Assembly: GCA_934247125.1 (NCBI GenBank)
Contig: CAKQIZ010000027.1
Location: 1 to 20,988, forward strand
DNA length: 20,988 nucleotides
DNA from: an uncultured Clostridia bacterium
GTDB lineage: Bacteria > Bacillota > Clostridia > Peptostreptococcales > Anaerovoracaceae
Direction: 5' to 3'
Every line of letters begins with the position of its first letter. Within the stretch, counting starts at the first letter, position 1. The position numbers were made by a program, and so were the translations under genes. Shown here one piece after another: positions 4,915 through 20,988 of the stretch. Below the pieces are notes generated by a model. The model was not told where the DNA came from. It saw only the letters and a list, made by a program, of their open reading frames with translations, and searched no databases.

Positions 4915-4918
4915 ATCG

Positions 4919-4978
4919 CCCGGTGTTGCTGCAGATCACCCGGTGTTACTACAGATCGCCGGGCGCACCTGCAGATAC
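4919..4978. repeat. three tandem 20-bp repeats
   Basis: Three head-to-tail 20-bp units at 4919-4938, 4939-4958 and 4959-4978 follow the pattern CCSGGYGYTRCTRCAGATCR, the third more diverged. They lie between the adhesin 3' end and the two-component promoter. They are adjacent to the GAAA-capped hairpin at 4979-5015. Confidence 0.65.
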
Positions 4979-5050: not shown

Positions 5051-8000
5051 TTACTGCTTTATCTTTCTTCTTACGAGCACTGCTCCGCCTGCTGTCGCAG
5101 CCATCATCATCAGACCCAGAGCCACAGCCATGTTGCTGTTGTCACCTGTATCCGTGCCTGTTCCTGCAGGCTCGTAATGATTGGTGAATACGATGCTGCC
5201 ATCGCTCACTTCTGCGGTAAGCATGCCGCTGCCGTCATCCGTGACTGTTACCTTGATCTTGTAAACATGCTCGTCGTATTTAACGTTGGCCTGTTTGTCG
5301 TTCACTTCTGAAACAGTGTATTCATATACGCCTGCTTTTTTGAACTTCACAGTGTCAAACATGACTGCTCCTGTCTTGTCGTTCTTCGCCTCTGCGATCA
5401 CCTTGCCGTCCGCATCCTTCAGCTGGAATGTGAACTGTCCTGCCTCCAGAGCCTTGCCTTCAAGCTTCTTGACAGCTCCGACCGTCACTGATGTCGGCGC
5501 AGCCTTGTATTTGTTGCTGAAGGTGATGGCGTTCTTTTCTGCAGGAACTGCCTCATTATCAGTTATCATTGTGATCACCTGATGCTTTGCTTTGAGGGTG
5601 CCGTCGCCATTGTCGGTGATCTGCGTGTAAACAGTGTACAGCTGATCATCGTAAGTCACACCGCCTGCACTGCCCTTGACCTCACGTACTGTGTAAGTGT
5701 GGTTTCCAGGCTCAGTGTATGTGATGCGGCTGAATGTTACCTTGCCCTTTGCATCGTTGCTGCCTGTTGCGATCACTTCACCGCCTTCAAGCAGCTCGAA
5801 GCTGAATTCGCCGTCTCTGAGGTCTCTGCCTGTGAGATCCTTATCGATGCTGATCTGGTCGGTTATGCTCGATGGCAGTTCTCCGACTGTGTAGGTATTG
5901 GTAAATGTAAACTTCGGACCTTCCGCTGGATCGCATGTTGCTGTCAGTTTGCCGTTTCCGTCATCTGTGAGTGTGATCGTGAATGTCTTGCCTGTAACGG
6001 CATCCGGATCATTCGTCACGCCTGCAGCGCTGCCTGCCTCTGTCACCTTGTATTCAAATACCTTTGTTCTCGATTCGTCAGCAGCTGGTGCCACGTCCTC
6101 AAGATCGCTGAGCTTGAAAGTCGTCTTGCCAAAGTTCACGTTGCCGGCTGCATCGTTTTTCGCCGTTGTATTATCAGGCATCGGTGCACCGTCTGTGAGT
6201 GCTGTGATCGTGAATGTGAACTTGCCTGTGATATCGTTCGGTGTCAGACCTTCTGCATAAGACAGTGTCTTGCTGCCCGTCACGTTCACATCGACATCAT
6301 CTGTACCATACTGGTTGACGAATCCGAACTTGGATTTGCCGTCAGGATATTTCGTAACTGCTGTCAGCGTACCGTCTCCGTTATCCGTCACAGTAACCGT
6401 GAAATCAAACGTTCCTGAGGTCATGCTCACGCCTCCAGGAAGAGCCGAGCTGTCTTCGTAAACTCTGTAGCTCAGAGTGTAGACTGTCCTGCCGTCATCA
6501 TCGACAGACTTCACCGCATAGCCTTCTCTGACTGCATCGCTGAGTATCACAGCATTTTCACCTGCCGCCTCGTCTAAAGTCTTGTAGCTCAGCGAGCTGA
6601 ATGCGATATTGCCGCTGCTGTCGTTCTTCACGGTCTGAAGCACTTCGCCTTCACTGCCGTCCGCAGGTTTTGTGGCAAGCATGAATGTGAATTCATCAGC
6701 TTTCAATGAGCGCCCTGTCAGCGTCTTGTCTGCCTTGACATCTGCCTTTGTGCCGCCATCGGCGTCTGTAGAACCGTCATAACGGTTTTCGAAGCCTATA
6801 GCGATACCCTCCTGACCGGCTGCAGGCTCTTCCTTGCTTACAGTCTTGTTGAAGATCTTCTCGCCTGTAGTCGTATTTGTCAGTACGATATTTGCCTTGA
6901 GCGTACCGTCTCCATTGTCTATCGTCGTTATCTCCAGCTTATACTGGTTTTTATCGTATACATAGCCCTTATCGCTGCCCTTTGTCTCTGCAATGGTGTA
7001 AGTGTATGTCTTTCCGATATCTTCCTGAGTCAGGATCATTCCCAGTGAATCGATCAGTGTGCTCACTTCTGAATCATTTGCTGCCGGATTACCGAATACA
7101 GCACCTTCGTCAAGGCTTATGTTCATTTTATCTGCTGAAGCCTTGTCTTTCGCCTTGATGGTGAACTCGAACTGATCCTTCGCCATATCGTGTCCGTAGA
7201 GCACCTTGGTGACGCTTACTCCGCACACTTCATCAAGAGACAGGTCTTCTGTCTCGTATTTATTTGTAAATGTCCTGCTGCCCGCTACAGTTGTTACAAC
7301 TGCTTCAAGCTGGCCGTTTTCATTGTCTGTCACTGTGACCGTGATGGTTCTTGCTGCAGTATCGTATTTCACTCCTGCTGCACCACTGTCTCCAGGATCC
7401 TGTTCTTTAACTTCATATTCATAAGCGCCGGCCTTCGTAAATGTTATATTGCCAAAGCTGACAGGTGCTTTACCATCTGTCAGGTCAGCCTTGCTTACGG
7501 TTACCTCTGATTTCTCAGGCATCGGTGCGCCGTCTGTCAGAGCCCTTAATGTAAATGTGAAGCTGTCGCTGTCTTTCCAGTCGCGCCCCTTCAGGACTTT
7601 CTGGAATCCTTCTGTGATATCAACAGGGTCTGCAGCTGCAGCCTTGTAGCTGTTGTCGAATCTCACTGTAGGTATGCCTGCTTCTGCATCAGAGCTGTCG
7701 TAAACAGCTGTCTGCTCTGAACCGTCTGCTGCAGTCCACATGATTGTCGTCACTGTGTGCATCGTGCCGTCGCCATTATCCACGACTTTGATAGCAACTG
7801 TATATTCTGTGTCGTCGTATGTCACACCTATGAGATCTCCGGCAGCTTCTTGTACAGTATAAGTGTATGTCGTACCTGCGTTATCCTGAGTGAACACGAG
7901 TCCCTGCAGCTTCTTCATTGTCTCTGGTATGCCGGAAGCTCTCCTCTCGACATTTGTGAATTCCCTGTCGCTGTCGCTGATGGCAGGTGCGCCCTCTGAC

Positions 8001-11000
8001 GGTGTGATCTCGAAAGCAAATTCTCCCGCTTTCATTGTCCTGCCGTTGAGGACCTTTTCAATATTCAGTCCGCCGTTGGTGCTGTATGCATGAGATGCTT
8101 CGTATTTATTCTCGAATACTGCTCTGTCCGATGCATTGGAAACAGTACCGTTGTCATATGAAACCGCTGCCTCGAGCTGACCGTTGCCATCGTCTGTCAC
8201 TACGACAGTCGCCTTTGCAGTGTGACGGTCGTATGTCATTCCGCCGGCTTTCGGATCAGGTACAGTTTCCTTGATGTCAAAGGTGTATGTTCCTTCTTTT
8301 GTAAAGGTCACATCTCCGAAGTTGAAGCTTGTAGGCTTCTTGTTCGTTCCGCCAGATACGGATGCTCTGTCGCCGTTCTCTGCGATGGCAACCGTTCCAG
8401 CATTGATTGCTTCCTCTGTACTGTCGTCTCCTGCTGTCAGCGTGAACTCAAAGGTTTCATTCTCAAGCATATCTCTGCCTGTCAGTGTCTTGTCACCTCT
8501 GAGAGCAGTATCAGCATCAACTGTCAGTGTCACAGGATCTGCACTGTACGAGTTATTGAAAACAGGAACTCCAGTAGTTATTTCCCTGCCGTCAGCGTCC
8601 AGATACGTTCTGTCAACGATGACTGTATCCTTGCCATTGACTTTATCGATGTATACATTAAAACGTACAGTATACTTTGCAGTATCATATGTCACACCAT
8701 TGACTTTATAGCCGTTCTGAGCAGTAGCTCCTTCCGGGAGAACTTCCTCCATTGTGTACTCATATGATATAGGTTTTTCTATAGTTGCACCCTTTGCATA
8801 TTCTGCTGTCACTGTCACATTGCCGAATACGACACCTATACCGGTATTCGTTGTTTCGATGTAACTTTCTCCTCCAGGAAGCGGTGCTCCACCCTTCGCT
8901 GTGAGCCTGAAAGTGTACTCCCCGTCTTCAAGCTGTCTGCTGCCTGTGTAGTCAGTGAAGCTCTTTTTAGCTGCAACGTCCACATGTGCTGAATCAGCAT
9001 CGTATACATTCCTGAAAACTGCCGTATTGTCATTTATTATGACTGCATTCTCCAGCTCATCTCCATTATCGTCTCTGACCTGCTTCATGACTGCCTCTGC
9101 ATTGAGAGTGCCGTCCTTGTCAGTTACGGTAACTGTCACTGTGTATGCTGCGTATGAATATGATACGCCCAGCTTCCCGTCTGCAGCAGGGTCTTTCTCT
9201 ACGAGCCTGTATCTGTATGTTCCCGGCTCAGTGTATTTTATATCACCGAATGTCTTGTTTATATCATCAGCACTCTTGACCTGCACTACTGCAGTCTTGC
9301 CTGCTGCCGTGGTTGTGCTGTCCTCCGGCATCGGCATATCGCTGCCGTCAGCTACCAGGTAGAATGTGAACTCTGCATCTTTGAGATATTCCATATCCCA
9401 TGCGGAACCTCCGCTGGCTGTCACGAAGTCTTTTTTGAGCTTCAGGTTAGCTGATCCGTCAAGTGTTGCAGGATCTGCCTTATATGTGTTTGTAAAGGCT
9501 GCCGACGCAACATCGTTGCCCGGGATCGTGCCCTTTGCAAATACACCGCCGTTGTTATCCTTGCCTGTCTCTGCGTTGTCACCGGCGTTGTCCTGAGTAA
9601 CTGCTGCCGTAAAATGATCAGCCTTCGTCTCAGTCACAGTATACTCTGTTCCAGGTGCAAGACCGTATATCTTCAGAGTCTGTCCGCCTTTGAGAGTGAA
9701 TTTATCTCCCGGCTTTATCTTGAAAGACTCTCCGTCTGCTTCCGCTCCGGTGTATTTCTGTGCAGTATACTTGTCCTTGAGCTCACTGCCCTCTTTTGCT
9801 GTCAGTTCCAGCTTGTATTCGAACTCCTTGTTTTTCAGGCTTTCAGGAACTGCATGACCCTCCTCGGCCTTCACTGTCTTGCTGATATCCAGCTGTCCCG
9901 GAAGATCTAAAGTCATACGACCATTGTTGCCGAGATATGCGGTAATGCTGTTGCCATGGAAATCGTTTTCCCATACAGGCTTTATTGATCTGGAAGCCGT
10001 TCCCGTTTTATTCGCGCCATCTGCCTTATCTTCTGTAAAGTACGTCAGGCTGGTCGTTCTCGGTGTGCCTGCCGGGATGTAATACTGACTGGCCTTTTCA
10101 TCGTATCTGGCATATCCTTGCAGCAGCAGATTGCTGTTGCCCGGGATAGTCACTGTATTTATCTTCTTTTCTGCTTTACCGTCTTTCAGCTCATAGTAGT
10201 CACGCTGATAATAGTAAGTCGTTTCACCGCTGGTGTCTATCTCACCAGTTGCCGGGTTCTTACATTCTTTATCCGTGTACAGGAACGCATTGTTCTGGAA
10301 ATAATAGAAGTCATTTGTGGTCGCCGGTTCGAAGTATGAGTATGCGCCTATGCCTTCTGATGCTTCATCCTTTGAGTCCTTGTCATATTTGTTAGTGTAA
10401 AAACGCACATGACCTTCGTCATCCTTGTTGTCATTGATGTATGCCTGAAGGAGTGCATCAGGGTTTTCTATTTTTTCTGCAACACCGTCTTTGAGACTCA
10501 CATTATAGAAAAGACGCATAGGGTATGTCTCATCTATAGTCATGTTGCCGTCTTTGTCGATCTCGTAATATCTGAGCGGGATCAGGCTGGCAGGGATCTT
10601 CATTGTGACAAGATCGCCCACATTCAGCTGATTATCACCTGTAGCCTTTTCGACTGTTATCACGATATCTTTGAGATTTCCTTCCGGATATACATGGTTC
10701 GTATAAGGGATGGCATAGTCAAATGTATATTTTACTGTCGTTTTATTGCCTGCTGTTGTCTCTGTCCTGCTGTAGCCCTGAGTCCCGGATGTAAGCATCT
10801 GATCTGCATACAGCAGTGTGTTCAGGTCATCGACCTGCATATAGTCACCAAGCTGATCGGTGATCGTGATATATCCAGCCTGACTCGGGTCTTCTCCCTG
10901 ATCCACATGAGTCGGAGACTGCGCTGAAGATATGATCTCATCACCGATCTCAGTGAATATACTGTTCAGATCTGCAGCATCTGTTGCTGCCTTGTAGTAC

Positions 11001-12268
11001 TGAGTATCCTCGCCGCTGCCGTTCTTCGCACGTGTGCCGAGCTTATTATACTTTTCTGCATCAGGATAGTTGCTGGACATACCATGCATATATGCATTGA
11101 ACATCTCCTTGTCTGACCATCTGCCCCCGCCTGTATGCCCTGTGACGCCGGCATCCGCCTCTGAGAAAACACCTATAGTGTAGATGGTCGCGTCTTTCTT
11201 GATAGCCTTTGCAGAGTTTATAGCATTATTTGCAACGGTATCGTCGAATCCACTGTGATGGTTCGGCTGGCCGTCCGTAAAGAATATAACTATCCTCTTG
11301 ACATTCTTGCGCTCGCTGTTTTCTGCCTGATCATCCTTGCTCTGCTTTACGAGTTTCTGTGTAAAATCCATGGCATAATCTGCCGCAGTAGCACCTGCAG
11401 GCTGCAATGCATTTACTTTATTCTGCAGCTCTGACTTGTTATCATTGGTATATGCCTTGTAATTGCTTACTATCTGAGTGTAGTTATAAGTATTTTTGCC
11501 TTCTCGGTAAGTATCGTTGCCGATCTTATCAGTTTTATCTCCGGCAAACTTCACGATCGAGATGCGGCTCTTCAGGTTATCCGGCAGCTTGCCGTTCTCA
11601 GCTGCAGATCTGTCGATGAAACTGTTCACCGCATTCTTGAGCGTCGTCATCTTTTTTACACTATTATATTCATAGAACTGGTCATGACTGCTGTCAGTAT
11701 CGTCTGCACTGGTTTTAGGTGTCACATACTGCCTTCCTATCCCCAAAAAGCCACCATAATACCACCTTTTCTGTGAGTTGCTGTACTGCACTTCGGTATA
11801 CTCTCCGCTGCGCAGTATATAATACGTCTTGCTCGTATCCAGCTGATAAACTTCCTGATATCCACCGCTGAAATTATCCATACTGCCTGACACATCCAGT
11901 ACCAGCACTATATCGAGGGGTACTGTTGTCTGTCCCATTATCTTCGCTGTAGATGACAGTGCCGATAATCCCACGAGAAAATCCGAATCATTATCCTTCT
12001 TTATGGTTTTCGAATTTCCGTTTGGCTTCGTCAGTACAATATCCTCCGTTGACACGGACTTGTCCGTCCAGATACGGCCGACGTTCTTCGTGCTGTCATC
12101 CAGCGCGTTCGAGTCGTGCCAGTTGTTCACAGTCAGATCGTCCGCGACTGTGTTCTCAGCTGCACCTGCACTCTGTGGACATAGACATAGTCCGAAAACC
12201 ATGACTGCGGCTACCACAAATGCAAGTATCGATGCTGATAGCTTTCTTTTCCTGCTTAATACTCTCAT
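5051..12268 (-). CDS. giant surface adhesin: VWA domain plus ten Spy0128/FctA-type repeats
   Basis: This is a 2405-residue secreted, cell-surface protein. In order: a signal peptide (about 1-37, RKRK then a hydrophobic core ending SAGAA); a short N-terminal region with NVGRIWTDKSVS; a VWA domain (about 117-450) with MIDAS residues DVSGS (from Asp125), Thr294 and Asp332 (FFTDGQP); a roughly 340-residue beta-rich region; a Cna-B-like domain (about 792-929); ten tandem Spy0128/FctA pilin-type domains (about 937-2365); and a C-terminal hydrophobic helix ending RRKIKQ. The repeats keep the Lys, Glu and Asn (for example KTLTGR, IKE, FENKY) that form intramolecular isopeptide bonds. The expected LPxTG is replaced by GTDTGD. 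I chose ATG 12268 because AAGGAG precedes it and a signal peptide follows. The in-frame codon at 12412 lies in the promoter. The likely role is host or surface adhesion. Confidence 0.9.
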   Translation of the reverse strand: MRVLSRKRKLSASILAFVVAAVMVFGLCLCPQSAGAAENTVADDLTVNNWHDSNALDDSTKNVGRIWTDKSVSTEDIVLTKPNGNSKTIKKDNDSDFLVGLSALSSTAKIMGQTTVPLDIVLVLDVSGSMDNFSGGYQEVYQLDTSKTYYILRSGEYTEVQYSNSQKRWYYGGFLGIGRQYVTPKTSADDTDSSHDQFYEYNSVKKMTTLKNAVNSFIDRSAAENGKLPDNLKSRISIVKFAGDKTDKIGNDTYREGKNTYNYTQIVSNYKAYTNDNKSELQNKVNALQPAGATAADYAMDFTQKLVKQSKDDQAENSERKNVKRIVIFFTDGQPNHHSGFDDTVANNAINSAKAIKKDATIYTIGVFSEADAGVTGHTGGGRWSDKEMFNAYMHGMSSNYPDAEKYNKLGTRAKNGSGEDTQYYKAATDAADLNSIFTEIGDEIISSAQSPTHVDQGEDPSQAGYITITDQLGDYMQVDDLNTLLYADQMLTSGTQGYSRTETTAGNKTTVKYTFDYAIPYTNHVYPEGNLKDIVITVEKATGDNQLNVGDLVTMKIPASLIPLRYYEIDKDGNMTIDETYPMRLFYNVSLKDGVAEKIENPDALLQAYINDNKDDEGHVRFYTNKYDKDSKDEASEGIGAYSYFEPATTNDFYYFQNNAFLYTDKECKNPATGEIDTSGETTYYYQRDYYELKDGKAEKKINTVTIPGNSNLLLQGYARYDEKASQYYIPAGTPRTTSLTYFTEDKADGANKTGTASRSIKPVWENDFHGNSITAYLGNNGRMTLDLPGQLDISKTVKAEEGHAVPESLKNKEFEYKLELTAKEGSELKDKYTAQKYTGAEADGESFKIKPGDKFTLKGGQTLKIYGLAPGTEYTVTETKADHFTAAVTQDNAGDNAETGKDNNGGVFAKGTIPGNDVASAAFTNTYKADPATLDGSANLKLKKDFVTASGGSAWDMEYLKDAEFTFYLVADGSDMPMPEDSTTTAAGKTAVVQVKSADDINKTFGDIKYTEPGTYRYRLVEKDPAADGKLGVSYSYAAYTVTVTVTDKDGTLNAEAVMKQVRDDNGDELENAVIINDNTAVFRNVYDADSAHVDVAAKKSFTDYTGSRQLEDGEYTFRLTAKGGAPLPGGESYIETTNTGIGVVFGNVTVTAEYAKGATIEKPISYEYTMEEVLPEGATAQNGYKVNGVTYDTAKYTVRFNVYIDKVNGKDTVIVDRTYLDADGREITTGVPVFNNSYSADPVTLTVDADTALRGDKTLTGRDMLENETFEFTLTAGDDSTEEAINAGTVAIAENGDRASVSGGTNKKPTSFNFGDVTFTKEGTYTFDIKETVPDPKAGGMTYDRHTAKATVVVTDDGNGQLEAAVSYDNGTVSNASDRAVFENKYEASHAYSTNGGLNIEKVLNGRTMKAGEFAFEITPSEGAPAISDSDREFTNVERRASGIPETMKKLQGLVFTQDNAGTTYTYTVQEAAGDLIGVTYDDTEYTVAIKVVDNGDGTMHTVTTIMWTAADGSEQTAVYDSSDAEAGIPTVRFDNSYKAAAADPVDITEGFQKVLKGRDWKDSDSFTFTLRALTDGAPMPEKSEVTVSKADLTDGKAPVSFGNITFTKAGAYEYEVKEQDPGDSGAAGVKYDTAARTITVTVTDNENGQLEAVVTTVAGSRTFTNKYETEDLSLDEVCGVSVTKVLYGHDMAKDQFEFTIKAKDKASADKMNISLDEGAVFGNPAANDSEVSTLIDSLGMILTQEDIGKTYTYTIAETKGSDKGYVYDKNQYKLEITTIDNGDGTLKANIVLTNTTTGEKIFNKTVSKEEPAAGQEGIAIGFENRYDGSTDADGGTKADVKADKTLTGRSLKADEFTFMLATKPADGSEGEVLQTVKNDSSGNIAFSSLSYKTLDEAAGENAVILSDAVREGYAVKSVDDDGRTVYTLSYRVYEDSSALPGGVSMTSGTFDFTVTVTDNGDGTLTAVTKYPDGKSKFGFVNQYGTDDVDVNVTGSKTLSYAEGLTPNDITGKFTFTITALTDGAPMPDNTTAKNDAAGNVNFGKTTFKLSDLEDVAPAADESRTKVFEYKVTEAGSAAGVTNDPDAVTGKTFTITLTDDGNGKLTATCDPAEGPKFTFTNTYTVGELPSSITDQISIDKDLTGRDLRDGEFSFELLEGGEVIATGSNDAKGKVTFSRITYTEPGNHTYTVREVKGSAGGVTYDDQLYTVYTQITDNGDGTLKAKHQVITMITDNEAVPAEKNAITFSNKYKAAPTSVTVGAVKKLEGKALEAGQFTFQLKDADGKVIAEAKNDKTGAVMFDTVKFKKAGVYEYTVSEVNDKQANVKYDEHVYKIKVTVTDDGSGMLTAEVSDGSIVFTNHYEPAGTGTDTGDNSNMAVALGLMMMAATAGGAVLVRRKIKQ
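5170..9460 (-). repeat. ten diverged repeats coding for isopeptide-bonded pilin-like domains
   Basis: Ten consecutive coding repeats of about 110-165 codons each make up 60% of the adhesin. Each begins with a KxLxGR-like strand, has a GxTFTxxGxYxYxVxE centre, and ends with VTVTDNGDGxL followed by FxNxY. DNA identity between units is low, so they are protein-level repeats with little risk of recombination. Two units share a near-identical ALTDGAPMP segment. Confidence 0.8.
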
Positions 12269-12312
12269 TCTCAGCTCTCCTTCTTTTGAACTTCCCCTAT
12301 TTACGAAATACT

Positions 12313-12353
12313 TTGTAATATTGAGCGATATCAAAGTAAATCTTATATTACAA
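12313..12353 (-). promoter_or_regulatory. inverted repeat in the adhesin 5' leader
   Basis: TTGTAATAT (12313-12321) and ATATTACAA (12345-12353) form a perfect 9-bp inverted repeat spaced by 23 bp. It lies between the promoter and the adhesin start codon. It could be an operator or an RNA stem that modulates adhesin expression. Confidence 0.45.
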
Positions 12354-12402
12354 TTAGATTTTTTAATAGATATATGTAGAATCAGTTCTGTTGCGATTTT
12401 TA

Positions 12403-12431
12403 AGTATACCACATTACTCCTGTTATTTCAA
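12403..12431 (-). promoter_or_regulatory. adhesin promoter
   Basis: On the minus strand TTGAAA (12426-12431) and TATACT (12403-12408) are separated by 17 bp. Transcription would begin near 12396, leaving a leader of about 128 nt. This excludes the upstream in-frame start at 12412 and supports 12268. Confidence 0.65.
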
Positions 12432-17636: not shown

Positions 17637-18776
17637 ATGTATAAAGATGCGATCAGAGCCGCATGGGCAGAAATCAATATTACGAACCTTGACTACAATA
17701 TAAAACAGATAAAAGACAAGGTCGGACCGGGCAAAAAGATAACCGGCATCATAAAAGCGGATGCTTACGGCCACGGTGCGGTCAAAGTTGCTACGGTACT
17801 GAGAGCTAACGGTATCGAATCTTTTGGTGTGGCAACTCTGTCGGAAGCTGTACGCCTGCGAAAGGCCGGCTTTATCCTCGAAGAAATCATCGTTCTGGGA
17901 CTGACTCCGGATCCTTACATAGATACGATCATCGAATACAGGCTCACACCTGTGGTCTGCGACTACGAAAATGCCGAAGCCATATCGAGGGCTGCAGCCA
18001 GGGCAAACATCATAATCAGCGGATATCTGGCAATCGACACCGGAATGGGTCGTATCGGATATGACACTGACAATTCATCATCGATCGATGATATCAGAAT
18101 GATAATGAACCTGCCGAATTTCAGGATCTCCGGACTTTTTTCACACTTTGCGGCGGCAGATTCGCTTGACAAGACGTACACTACAGTACAGGAACAGCGA
18201 TTCATGGTGTTTTACAAAAAGCTGCTGAATGCCGGTATCCCGATACCTTGCAGGACGCTCGCGAACAGTGCTGCGATCATGGAAGTGGCATCTTCGCACT
18301 ATGAAATGGTCCGCCCGGGTATCATAATGTACGGCTGCTATCCATCTGCGGAAGTCGACAGGAGCCAGATCGATCTGCGCCCGGTGATGTCGATAAAAGC
18401 GAACATCGTCCAGCTTAAAAAAGTTCCCGCAGGAAACTCGATCAGCTACGGTCGAAAATTCACGACGCGTCAGGACAGTCTTATCGCAACTATCCCGATC
18501 GGATACTCCGATGGCCTTCCCAGACCTTACTCAACAAAAGGCAAAGTCATCGTGAACGGCGTCTTTGCACCGATCGCAGGAACCATATGCATGGATCAGT
18601 GTATGATCGACGTGACCCACGTGCCTTATCCCAGGCTCAGCGACGAAGTCACGATCATGGGCAAGGACGGCATCTACGAGATCAGCGCAGAAGACATCGC
18701 AAAAGCAACGAATACCATAAACTATGAGATTCTGTGCGCATTCGGCCAGAGACTTCCAAAGGTCTATGTGTATTAG
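17637..18776 (+). CDS. alr: alanine racemase
   Basis: This 379-residue PLP enzyme interconverts L- and D-alanine, supplying D-Ala for peptidoglycan. The N-terminal barrel carries IIKADAYGHGA with the PLP lysine Lys40. The second catalytic residue, Tyr271, is in SISYGRKFT, followed by IPIGYSDGLPR. The C-terminal domain has GTICMDQCMIDV (315-326) and ends CAFGQRLPKVYVY. The start is less certain than elsewhere: GGAGG lies 12 bases before the ATG and AGAGG touches it. The N-terminal sequence IRAAWAEINITNLDYNI fits the family from this start. It probably shares the purB-purA transcript, and a terminator follows. Confidence 0.95.
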   Translation: MYKDAIRAAWAEINITNLDYNIKQIKDKVGPGKKITGIIKADAYGHGAVKVATVLRANGIESFGVATLSEAVRLRKAGFILEEIIVLGLTPDPYIDTIIEYRLTPVVCDYENAEAISRAAARANIIISGYLAIDTGMGRIGYDTDNSSSIDDIRMIMNLPNFRISGLFSHFAAADSLDKTYTTVQEQRFMVFYKKLLNAGIPIPCRTLANSAAIMEVASSHYEMVRPGIIMYGCYPSAEVDRSQIDLRPVMSIKANIVQLKKVPAGNSISYGRKFTTRQDSLIATIPIGYSDGLPRPYSTKGKVIVNGVFAPIAGTICMDQCMIDVTHVPYPRLSDEVTIMGKDGIYEISAEDIAKATNTINYEILCAFGQRLPKVYVY

Positions 18777-18815
18777 GCAAGTTGGCATCGCATAACAGAT
18801 ATCATATAATAAATA

Positions 18816-18871
18816 AAAAAGAGAGGATCGGCAGACCGGACTGCATGGGCTGCAATATTTCCTCTCTTTTT
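18816..18871 (+). terminator. terminator of the purB-purA-alr cluster
   Basis: AAAAAGAGAGGA (18816-18827) pairs perfectly with TCCTCTCTTTTT (18860-18871), with a 32-nt loop. The A-rich left arm and T-rich right arm make it work in both directions. Confidence 0.75.
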
Positions 18872-18986
18872 CCTATTATGCAGGTGTTTGGCGTATGTTG
18901 GCAGATGTTATCATATGTTGGACATGTGTTTCGTGTATCGCCATTAAGCGAATCGTTTCTGTCTAACTATGTCTTTAAATAGCGAT
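18872..18986. other. short non-coding stretch
   Basis: No gene was found. The heptamer ATGTTGG occurs twice within 18897-18923, and the stretch is T/G-rich on the plus strand. It leads directly into the 73-bp repeat array. Confidence 0.3.
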
Positions 18987-19242
18987 TACCAAAACTGTAC
19001 CTTCTGGCTATCTTCTTTAGTAAAATCACTGAAAAATCCTGCCTTTCAAGAGGATCTATTACCAAGAATCAAAATTCAGCCATGCTTATTTGGTAAAATT
19101 CTTCATGAAAATATGCTTTTTTTACATCTAAAATACCAAGAATCAGTAGCCGGTTTCTGATTTTTGGTATCCGGCATCAGAAAAAGAGCCGGAAAACCGC
19201 TGTTTTTACCAACAGCAGCCATCCGGCAAACGATTTTTGGTT
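18987..19242. repeat. array of four 36-bp palindromic elements at 73-74 bp period
   Basis: Elements at 18987-19022, 19060-19095, 19134-19169 and 19207-19242 are each exactly 36 bp. They begin TACCAA and end TTGGTA (TTAGTA in the first, TTGGTT in the last). Starts are 73, 74 and 73 bp apart, and the intervals are 37, 38 and 37 bp. By eye, neighbouring elements share about 22-23 of 36 positions, and the intervals also share a GAAAA...TGC core. The third element forms a 14-bp hairpin (19133-19146 with 19157-19170, one G-T). Alternative pairings are TTTCTGAT / ATCAGAAA (19154-19183) and GCCGG / CCGGC (19188-19227) enclosing CTGTT / AACAG. It is not annotated as CRISPR because the repeats are too diverged. 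Confidence 0.65.
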
Positions 19243-19318
19243 TTCAGCACGCACGTCTTAACTTCCAGCTCTATTCCAAGACTCTTCTGCCCAAAATACT
19301 CCATGCGATCGGCGCATC

Positions 19319-19933
19319 TTACAGCCTGTTTATTTCAGGCAGGCTGACGATCCTGCTGCAGACCCTTTCCGCGAGCGCCATATTATGCGTCACTACTGCC
19401 ATCCCCAGATCACGTTCACGCGCCCTTTCCAGCAGCAGCTCCCATATCTGTGCCTGCGTTATCACATCCAGCATCGTCGTGATCTCATCACAGACAAGAA
19501 ACTGCGTCTGCGGACCGAGCACCCTGGCGATACAGAAACGCTGCAGCTCGCCGCCCGAAAGCTCCGACGGCCATCGTTTCAGCCATTCACTTTCGATACC
19601 CATTGCTCTGAGCAGCTGCTCATCGGGCTCCCAGCATTCTTTCAGCGTCCGTTCCATCTTCCAGCGCGGATTCACCGCCTGCTCCGGGTGCTGATATATC
19701 ATCTGTACCGGAGAATACCCACGCTCAGGCAGCGGCTTTCCATCCAGCAGCACCTGCCCTTCCGTAGGCTTGATATAGCCCGCCAGGATCTTGGAGAGCG
19801 TACTCTTTCCGTATCCTGACGGCCCGGTGAGAGCCACCCGCTCACCGGTCTCGATCGTAAGATCCACATTTTTCAGGATCCACGGGCTCTTATTATTATA
19901 TCTGAAGCTTATATTCTCTGCTCTAAGTTGCAT
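19319..19933 (-). CDS. ABC transporter ATP-binding protein, DppF/OppF/NikE type
   Basis: This 204-residue cytosolic ATPase is the second of two that power a peptide- or nickel-type importer. Walker A is GPSGYGKST (about 38-46), the Q-loop is in MIYQHPEQAVNP, the signature is LSGGELQRF, Walker B is FLVCDEITTMLD, and the switch His is in VVTHN. It ends soon after the core domain, without the C-terminal extension usual in OppF (about 300 residues), so it is of the shorter NikE-like size or shorter. Its ATG overlaps the upstream ATPase gene by 11 nt, implying coupled translation. No clear terminator follows; a small ATGCG/CGCAT hairpin lies at 19303-19317. Confidence 0.9.
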   Translation of the reverse strand: MQLRAENISFRYNNKSPWILKNVDLTIETGERVALTGPSGYGKSTLSKILAGYIKPTEGQVLLDGKPLPERGYSPVQMIYQHPEQAVNPRWKMERTLKECWEPDEQLLRAMGIESEWLKRWPSELSGGELQRFCIARVLGPQTQFLVCDEITTMLDVITQAQIWELLLERARERDLGMAVVTHNMALAERVCSRIVSLPEINRL

Positions 19934-20987
19934 GGATACACCTCACTTCCCCGCCTCTCAAACGACGCATTTCTATCTCTCCGCAGCACTCCGCGGTCCT
20001 GCGTGTACATCTCGGTGCAAACAGGCAGCCTTCCGGAAGCTCACCGGCATACGGCTGAGTCCCGGATATCGGCTTGAAGCCATTCTGCGGCAGCGCCTCT
20101 ATGAATGCCCTGCTGTACGGGTGCCTGAGCGCACTGCCGTCACCCCTGAAATCCGACGCCGGACAGATTTCCACGGTAGTCCCCGCGTAAAACACAGCGA
20201 TCCTGTCTGCGACGTTCAGCGCCAGGTCGATATCGTGCGTTATCAGCAGCACTCCACAGCCCTGATCCGCCAGTTCGCGAAAATTCCTGAGAGTCTCCAT
20301 CGCCATTTCCAGGTCAAGACCCGGAGTCGGTTCGTCCGCTATTATCAGCTTCGCATTTTCCATCACCGCGGTCGATATCAGCACACGCCTCGCCATTCCG
20401 CCCGAAAGCTGGAACGGATACATATCCTCTGCTTCCTCCGCCAGACCGTATCTGCTGAATGCACGCTTGACCTTTTCCATAGTACCGCGCACACCTTTGA
20501 CCTGCCTGCCTACTTTCATCAGCGGATCGAGAAAATCCACAGACTGCGGGATGAACACGATCTCACTGCCGCGCAGCTCCGCTTTCCTCTCAGGAGACAG
20601 CGGCTCTCCATCAAACTCCATCGTACCGCTCATACTGCTGTTTTCCGGCAGTATCCCCAGCACCGAATGCGCCAGCAGGCTTTTGCCTGAGCCGCTTGAG
20701 CCGACCACTGCCATTATCTCGCCGGGATATACCTCGACATCAAGCGAATGTATCACCTCAAGATCCGTCTTGTTCCAGCCGCGATCATAACGACTGAATG
20801 AAATGGTCAGATCCTTTATATCGAGGAGAGGCTGCTGATCCGCACAGCCGTCGCACTCAAATGTTTCACGCTCTGACCTCCCGTTTTTTATATCGAATTC
20901 TGTTTTTTTGATTTCTTCTTTTTCTGTGATCATTTTTCCTGCCTTTTCATTTTCTCCGGGCTTGCACATCTGTATATCCATATGCAA
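19923..20987 (-). CDS. ABC transporter ATP-binding protein, DppD/OppD/NikD type
   Basis: This ATPase of up to 354 residues has Walker A GSSGSGKS, Q-loop FIPQSVDFLDP, signature LSGGMARRV, Walker B LIIADEPTPGLD and switch His in LITHD. The C-terminal oligopeptide-type extension HPYSRAFIEALP continues into a Cys cluster (GCLFAPRC, then CC and C), as in DppD/OppD. Substrate could be peptides or nickel. The start is uncertain: TTG at 20987, ATG at 20981 or ATG at 20933 (with AGGCAGG upstream) all fit. About 50 residues precede the ATPase core, which is longer than usual and includes ECDGC. The gene may therefore continue past the window edge. Permease and binding-protein genes should lie upstream, outside the window. 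Confidence 0.88.
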   Translation of the reverse strand: MHMDIQMCKPGENEKAGKMITEKEEIKKTEFDIKNGRSERETFECDGCADQQPLLDIKDLTISFSRYDRGWNKTDLEVIHSLDVEVYPGEIMAVVGSSGSGKSLLAHSVLGILPENSSMSGTMEFDGEPLSPERKAELRGSEIVFIPQSVDFLDPLMKVGRQVKGVRGTMEKVKRAFSRYGLAEEAEDMYPFQLSGGMARRVLISTAVMENAKLIIADEPTPGLDLEMAMETLRNFRELADQGCGVLLITHDIDLALNVADRIAVFYAGTTVEICPASDFRGDGSALRHPYSRAFIEALPQNGFKPISGTQPYAGELPEGCLFAPRCTRRTAECCGEIEMRRLRGGEVRCIHAT

Positions 20988-20988
20988 A

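What the first reader, a model, noticed from the sequence alone, without database searches (positions are those of the whole stretch)
18987..19242. Four exactly 36-bp dyads (TACCAA-N24-TTGGTA) at 73/74/73-bp period
All four elements have identical length and their bounding hexamers are inverted repeats. The intervals are 37/38/37 bp, close to CRISPR geometry, yet interiors match only about 60% between neighbours and the intervals are related too. The conserved parts are those that can pair, which suggests selection on structure (RNA or cruciform) inside an otherwise decayed tandem repeat. The third unit has mutually exclusive long stems. It sits between a terminator and an ABC operon that reads towards it. 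I know of no described element with this form.
Basis: seen in the sequence. Interest (0 to 1): 0.7.

Follow-up and report, generated by a model that had tools for sequence, protein, structure and literature searches.

The report
Phased four-site palindrome array
Between two genes of a Clostridia-like bacterium lie four evenly spaced 36-base elements with mirrored ends; the pattern is real and well beyond chance, but it was seen in this one sequence only and is more likely a row of protein-binding sites or an old repeat than a new RNA or a CRISPR.

Summary
The geometry is real. TACCAA lies at 18987, 19060, 19134 and 19207 (73/74/73 bp) with a right arm exactly 30 bp on: TTAGTA, TTGGTA, TTGGTA, TTGGTT, two of four exact. 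No such array arose in 100 dinucleotide shuffles. Selection on pairing is not supported: both arm changes break a pair, none of the six arm pairs is compensated, covariation equals shuffles (only four sequences). Structure is significant in the right half only: units 1-2 fold at z -0.9, while minus-strand hairpins in units 3-4 may be the ABC operon's terminators. The array was not found in relatives: 0 of 384 genomes for two units at one of the two spacings, up to 3 mismatches. Best reading: a helically phased four-site array for a dyad-recognising DNA-binding protein (0.4); main rival, a decayed lineage-specific palindromic repeat. Unexplained, one instance, modest interest.

The parts
18987..19022 (.). 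unit 1, TACCAA-N24-TTAGTA (right arm 1 mismatch)
19060..19095 (.). unit 2, TACCAA-N24-TTGGTA
19134..19169 (.). unit 3, TACCAA-N24-TTGGTA; 15 of 18 positions palindromic; the only unit that folds well alone
19207..19242 (.). unit 4, TACCAA-N24-TTGGTT (right arm 1 mismatch)
19023..19059 (.). interval 1, 37 bp
   Evidence: intervals not significantly related
19096..19133 (.). interval 2, 38 bp
19170..19206 (.). interval 3, 37 bp
19188..19227 (-). hairpin followed by TCTTTTTCT on the minus strand: possible terminator of the ABC operon, overlapping unit 4 and interval 3
   Evidence: inverted repeat I3; fold -27.7 kcal/mol, z -6.4; not listed by the consensus scan
19133..19170 (-). hairpin of unit 3 followed by TTTT on the minus strand: possible second terminator
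   Evidence: I1; z -4.1; not listed
17637..18776 (+). alanine racemase gene (alr) upstream
19319..19933 (-). ABC transporter ATPase, nearest named models of the nickel/peptide type but below their cut-offs; convergent with alr

Best explanation
A row of four binding sites for a DNA-binding protein that recognises two inverted half-sites (TACCAA and TTGGTA, 30 bp apart). The period of 73-74 bp is close to seven helical turns, so all four sites face the same side of the DNA and a multimer or nucleoprotein filament could assemble on them. The array lies between the 3' ends of alr and an ABC operon, so it is more likely architectural (a boundary or scaffold) than a promoter operator for either gene. 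Its right half overlaps possible terminators of the ABC operon. Shown: the geometry, the uneven conservation, the phasing at one common pitch, the convergent setting. Inferred: the protein, its binding, and any function.
For: Fixed 36-bp elements and even period beyond chance. Arms conserved far more than interiors, 2/48 against 35/96 departures. Arm changes are not compensated, as expected of sequence recognition rather than pairing. Period averages 73.3 bp; at 10.5 bp per turn the left arms fall at phases 0, 0.95, 0, 0.95 and the right arms at 0.86, 0.81, 0.86, 0.81. Intervals are constant in length though not measurably related in sequence.
Against: Among the genes scanned none beside the array is a regulator, and neither flanking gene starts here. 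The single dyad is not enriched in relatives: 14 places against 13 for the reversed control pattern in 91 genomes. The array is absent from the relatives searched. Interiors are related too, which a purely site-driven array would not need. The helical fit depends on the pitch: left arms spread over 0.15 turn at 10.4, 0.25 at 10.6, and out of phase at 10.0. The best plus-strand fold uses the arms.
Confidence: 0.4

Rival explanations
1. A decayed, lineage-specific palindromic repeat (of the REP, STAR or 'false-CRISPR' sort) whose four copies arose by duplication and now have no function; the shared arms are remnants.
For: Interiors are related in register (0.410, falling to 0.21-0.35 when slid by 1-3). 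Unit 3 looks like the intact palindrome (15 of 18 positions; the others 7, 8 and 9), unit 2 shares its first 12 bases and unit 4 is 83% like its right end over 18 bases. REPs lie predominantly between unidirectional and convergent genes (PMC3733652 abstract). No relative searched has the array.
Against: Neutral decay should not spare the twelve arm positions (Fisher p 1.2e-5, arms chosen after the fact). Intervals show no significant common ancestry. No other copy with up to 1 mismatch in the window.
Confidence: 0.28
2. A transcribed, structured RNA or terminator cluster: the right half holds the terminators of the ABC operon (minus strand), or the plus strand forms a branched RNA.
For: Plus strand of 18980-19250 folds at z -5.5, minus strand of 18980-19320 at z -2.7. 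Plus strand of 19130-19200 z -5.2; minus-strand hairpin 19188-19227 z -6.4 with a U-run; unit 3 hairpin z -4.1 on the minus strand with UUUU after it. The plus-strand fold pairs arms of units 2 and 3 and of unit 1 with unit 4. A promoter-like site (11 of 12) lies at 18782-18810 on the plus strand, though the number of such sites found, 3, is near the 1.8 expected.
Against: The left half folds no better than shuffles (z -0.92, 39 of 200), nor do units 1, 2 and 4 alone. No covariation beyond shuffles. The terminator scan lists neither hairpin; its one site is a weak stem at 19317-19303 on the minus strand, right after the ABC stop codon. No Rfam family reaches its gathering score here; eight weak matches, best E 0.41, all below it. 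A terminator pair does not explain four evenly spaced elements.
Confidence: 0.2
3. A fossil CRISPR array with 36-bp repeats and 37-38-bp spacers.
For: Geometry; elements related while intervals are not measurably so.
Against: Elements are only 50-64% identical to each other, whereas CRISPR repeats are nearly identical (PMC5294841 passage). No cas family among the ten window proteins scanned. Of the three intervals, two have no phage match and one has two hits at E 0.5. Conservation of the outer ends is not what CRISPR decay predicts (inference).
Confidence: 0.05
4. Remnant of a coding repeat: in each unit TAC CAA reads Tyr-Gln and the right arm Leu-Val, and both right-arm variants are synonymous.
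For: TTAGTA and TTGGTT still encode Leu-Val (letters; six frames).
Against: Periods 73/74/73 are not multiples of three, so the units alternate between two frames (arithmetic). No Pfam match to the six translations with E up to 5.
Confidence: 0.04

Closest known systems
REP / BIME palindromic repeats
   Same: 20-40-bp palindromes outside genes, often downstream of coding regions and between convergent genes (PMC3733652 abstract)
   Different: High copy number could not be tested; no further copy in the window and no enrichment in 91 relatives; strictly spaced; orientation cannot be told, direct and inverted similarity being alike for units 2-3 and 3-4
STAR-like elements and other 'false CRISPRs'
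   Same: Short repeats that resemble a repeat-spacer structure, without companion cas genes (PMC5294841 passages)
   Different: STAR repeats are GC-rich direct repeats; here the conserved parts are inverted hexamers in A+T-rich DNA, and Tandem Repeats Finder lists no array here
CRISPR arrays
   Same: 36-bp elements and 37-38-bp intervals
   Different: Element identity 50-64%, no cas family seen, ends rather than whole repeats conserved
Multi-site operators and nucleoprotein arrays (recalled, no call)
   Same: Inverted half-sites on one helical face at constant spacing
   Different: No gene starts beside it and no cognate regulator is known

Membership tests
CRISPR array | nearly identical repeats of 21-47 bp | tested here: not met
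   length met, pairwise identity 50-64%; definition from a passage of PMC5294841
CRISPR array | unrelated spacers of similar length | tested here: met
   37/38/37 bp, pooled identity p 0.18; intervals 1 and 2 borderline, p 0.054
CRISPR array | cas genes in the genome | not testable with these tools
   no genome held for the window; none among the ten window proteins scanned
REP / BIME | 20-40-bp palindrome outside genes | tested here: inconclusive
   36-bp dyads between convergent genes, but only unit 3 is strongly palindromic, 15 of 18; the others 7, 8, 9
REP / BIME | many copies in the genome | tested here: inconclusive
   no further copy with up to 1 mismatch in the 21-kb window; own genome not held
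structured RNA | covariation that keeps pairs | tested here: not met
   covariation score reached by 232 of 500 shuffles; only four sequences, so weak power
structured RNA | match to a known family | tested here: not met
   only a tRNA at gathering score in the whole window; weak matches only here
intrinsic terminator | stable hairpin followed at once by a U-run | tested here: inconclusive
   minus-strand hairpins with U-runs, z -6.4 and -4.1, but not listed by the consensus scan
protein-binding array | half-sites on one helical face | tested here: met
   all eight arms within 0.2 turn at 10.5 bp per turn; pitch chosen, so suggestive only
protein-binding array | a protein that binds it | not testable with these tools
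   needs an experiment

The most novel reading that the evidence does not exclude
A new kind of regularly interspaced palindrome array, with CRISPR-like dimensions but conserved mainly at the dyad ends, that serves as a phased nucleoprotein scaffold at the meeting point of two convergent transcription units.
Probability: 0.1. Interest if true: 0.6.

Novelty: new variant of a known kind. Interest (0 to 1): 0.35.

Why it matters
If the arms are held by selection, the array would point to an undescribed DNA-binding protein that works in phased multi-site arrays outside promoters. If not, it is a caution: an even spacing of 36/37 bp with short conserved ends can look like CRISPR or RNA without being either.

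Tried and rejected
Homologues of the region: blastn of 18777-19320 against the 80 alr loci gave best E 0.09. Blastn of 18880-19320 against plasmids and phages gave no match at E up to 1. Blastn of 18880-19300 against 149 relative genomes gave matches at E up to 1 per genome in 130, with at most four candidates scored in each and a capped list; the listed matches are short. The best, 32 bp at E 2.1e-5, in G106, lies in what looks by eye like a protein-coding stretch (not tested). Intervals against loci in hand gave short matches down to E 1e-4, but several of those loci had been fetched for matching this region, so that is circular.

Pattern searches: one dyad plus the next left arm, 1 of 149 genomes (G136), and by position that match lies inside a 626-aa reading frame. 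Two dyads with N37 between, up to 3 mismatches, 0 of 384; the same pattern matches the window twice with 1 mismatch, so it works. The N38 spacing was not run. Three left arms at period 72-74, 1 of 384 (G077), which looks by eye like a short coding repeat (not checked). Viral contigs: 31 stretches; at the fixed place none has a fourth arm within 1 mismatch, three have it within 2; taken as chance. Among the 80 alr loci (737,142 bases) one holds a dyad with up to 1 mismatch: L004, about 210 bases downstream of its alr, in what reads like a hairpin with a T-run. A single such match is near the chance rate by my arithmetic, but its place is noted below.

Architecture with other hexamers: of 207 loci held then (1.29 Mb), none has a four-fold periodic hexamer with dyad partners; 8 have a periodic hexamer without.

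Synteny: DNA downstream of alr was printed for 10 of 80 loci; none shows the array, and by eye some share neighbours with each other (L001 with L002, L002 with L004, L008 with L010) but not with the window. The window's two ABC proteins had no tblastn match at 1e-20 in the 80 loci. ABC homologues at E 1e-50 or better occur in 46 of 394 genomes. DNA downstream of six was printed, two of them cut by contig ends at 200 bases or less; the scan found no array in the ABC loci held (L081, L165-L193).

Literature: a search for papers holding both hexamers as words gave one staphylococcal paper, seen as a listing only. Searches were seen as listings; from them passages of PMC5294841 and the abstract and section list of PMC3733652 were read. 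No full text was read, and I make no claim that such an array is absent from print beyond these four searches.

Full report
What is there. The window is from a Clostridia-like bacterium: the best alr relatives (84% and 78% identical) are metagenome genomes labelled Firmicutes or Bacillota, Clostridiales and Eubacterium. Between the end of alr (18776, plus strand) and the end of an ABC ATPase gene (19319, minus strand) lie 542 bases of A+T-rich DNA (39% GC over 18780-19320, 48% over the window). Four TACCAA hexamers, the only ones on the plus strand of the window, start at 18987, 19060, 19134 and 19207. Exactly 30 bases after each start comes TTAGTA, TTGGTA, TTGGTA or TTGGTT.

Is it chance? A generic scan for any hexamer repeated four times with even period (40-120 bp, tolerance 1) finds this array alone in the window, with its dyad partner, and none in 100 dinucleotide shuffles. 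Of lags 20-129, the region's best self-match is at 73 (38% identity). The array is real.

What is conserved? Across the four units, 2 of 48 arm letters depart from the column majority, against 35 of 96 interior letters (counted; Fisher p 1.2e-5; arms chosen after the fact). Interiors are related in register: 0.410 against 0.252 in letter shuffles, 0 of 5000 reaching it, and 0.21-0.35 when slid by 1-3. Without the three columns next to each arm the signal weakens (0.352 against 0.243, p 0.009). Intervals are not distinguishable from shuffles (0.293 against 0.265, p 0.18), with intervals 1 and 2 borderline in a gapped test (p 0.054).

RNA or DNA? In the 36-mer alignment the six arm pairs are formed in 22 of 24 cells; both exceptions are uncompensated mismatches. 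Over twelve pairs, 72.9% are formed against 73.2% in shuffles; two inner pairs have a change on both sides (123 of 500 shuffles do as well), and the covariation score is reached by 232 of 500. The true register pairs better than slid ones (35-48%), which is expected because the structure was drawn from these sequences. Four sequences give little power. Units 1, 2 and 4 alone fold no better than shuffles; unit 3 does (z -5.5). But the left half, 18980-19130, has z -0.92, so the significant structure lies on the right. There the minus strand offers a 55-nt piece folding at -27.7 kcal/mol (z -6.4) with UCUUUUUCU after the hairpin, then the unit 3 hairpin with UUUU after it. These follow the ABC operon's stop codon and could be its terminators, although the consensus scan lists neither and names a weak stem at 19317-19303 instead.

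Phasing. The mean period, 73.3 bp, is 7.0 turns at 10.5 bp per turn; the left arms fall within 0.05 turn of one another and so do the right arms. Other pitches fit less well. Constant spacing with unrelated intervals and rare, uncompensated arm changes is what a protein-binding array would show. This is my best reading (0.4). A decayed palindromic repeat comes next (0.28).

Relatives. No second array was found: 0 of 384 genomes for two units with up to 3 mismatches (one of the two spacings), one chance-like match each in 149 and 384 genomes for looser patterns, no blastn match in plasmids or phages. The single dyad is as frequent as its reversed control, 14 and 13 places in 91 genomes. None of the 10 alr loci read (of 80) has the window's downstream arrangement, and the ABC homologue loci held do not show the array. 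The window's own genome is not held, the main limit of this work.

CRISPR. Dimensions fit, identity does not: 50-64% between elements, where CRISPR repeats are nearly identical (passage of PMC5294841). No cas family was seen among ten window proteins. No interval has a convincing phage match.

Verdict. A real, unexplained, single-instance feature with a plausible DNA-level explanation and a possible ordinary explanation for its strongest RNA structure. Interest 0.35.

Noticed in passing
18782-18871: A promoter-like site TTGGCA-17-TATAAT (11 of 12; three promoter-like sites found, 1.8 expected) begins 5 bases after the alr stop codon and is followed at once by a 12-bp perfect stem (18816-18827 with 18860-18871) that folds at z -4.1: alr terminator or a small RNA gene.
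   Followed up: partly
18895-18921: Direct repeats beginning ATGTT at 10-bp spacing, upstream of the array: possibly a phased regulator site.
   Followed up: no
L004:5514-5549: One dyad TACCCA-N24-TTGGTA about 210 bases downstream of alr in a relative, inside what reads like a hairpin with a T-run; a second, similar hairpin-like stretch follows it by eye.
   Followed up: partly
5051-12412 (-): A 2453-aa protein with a VWA domain and ten FctA (Spy0128-like isopeptide) stretches.
   Followed up: no
4915-4957: Tandem repeat of 20 bp (2.2 copies) upstream of a two-component system and just downstream of the 2453-aa protein's gene.
   Followed up: no
19200-20988: GC rises from about 36-39% in the array to 52-59% in the ABC genes. 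Of 25 genomes close by alr, one has an ABC homologue at 73% identity; the other listed matches (capped list) are at 43% or less, so the operon may be acquired.
   Followed up: partly
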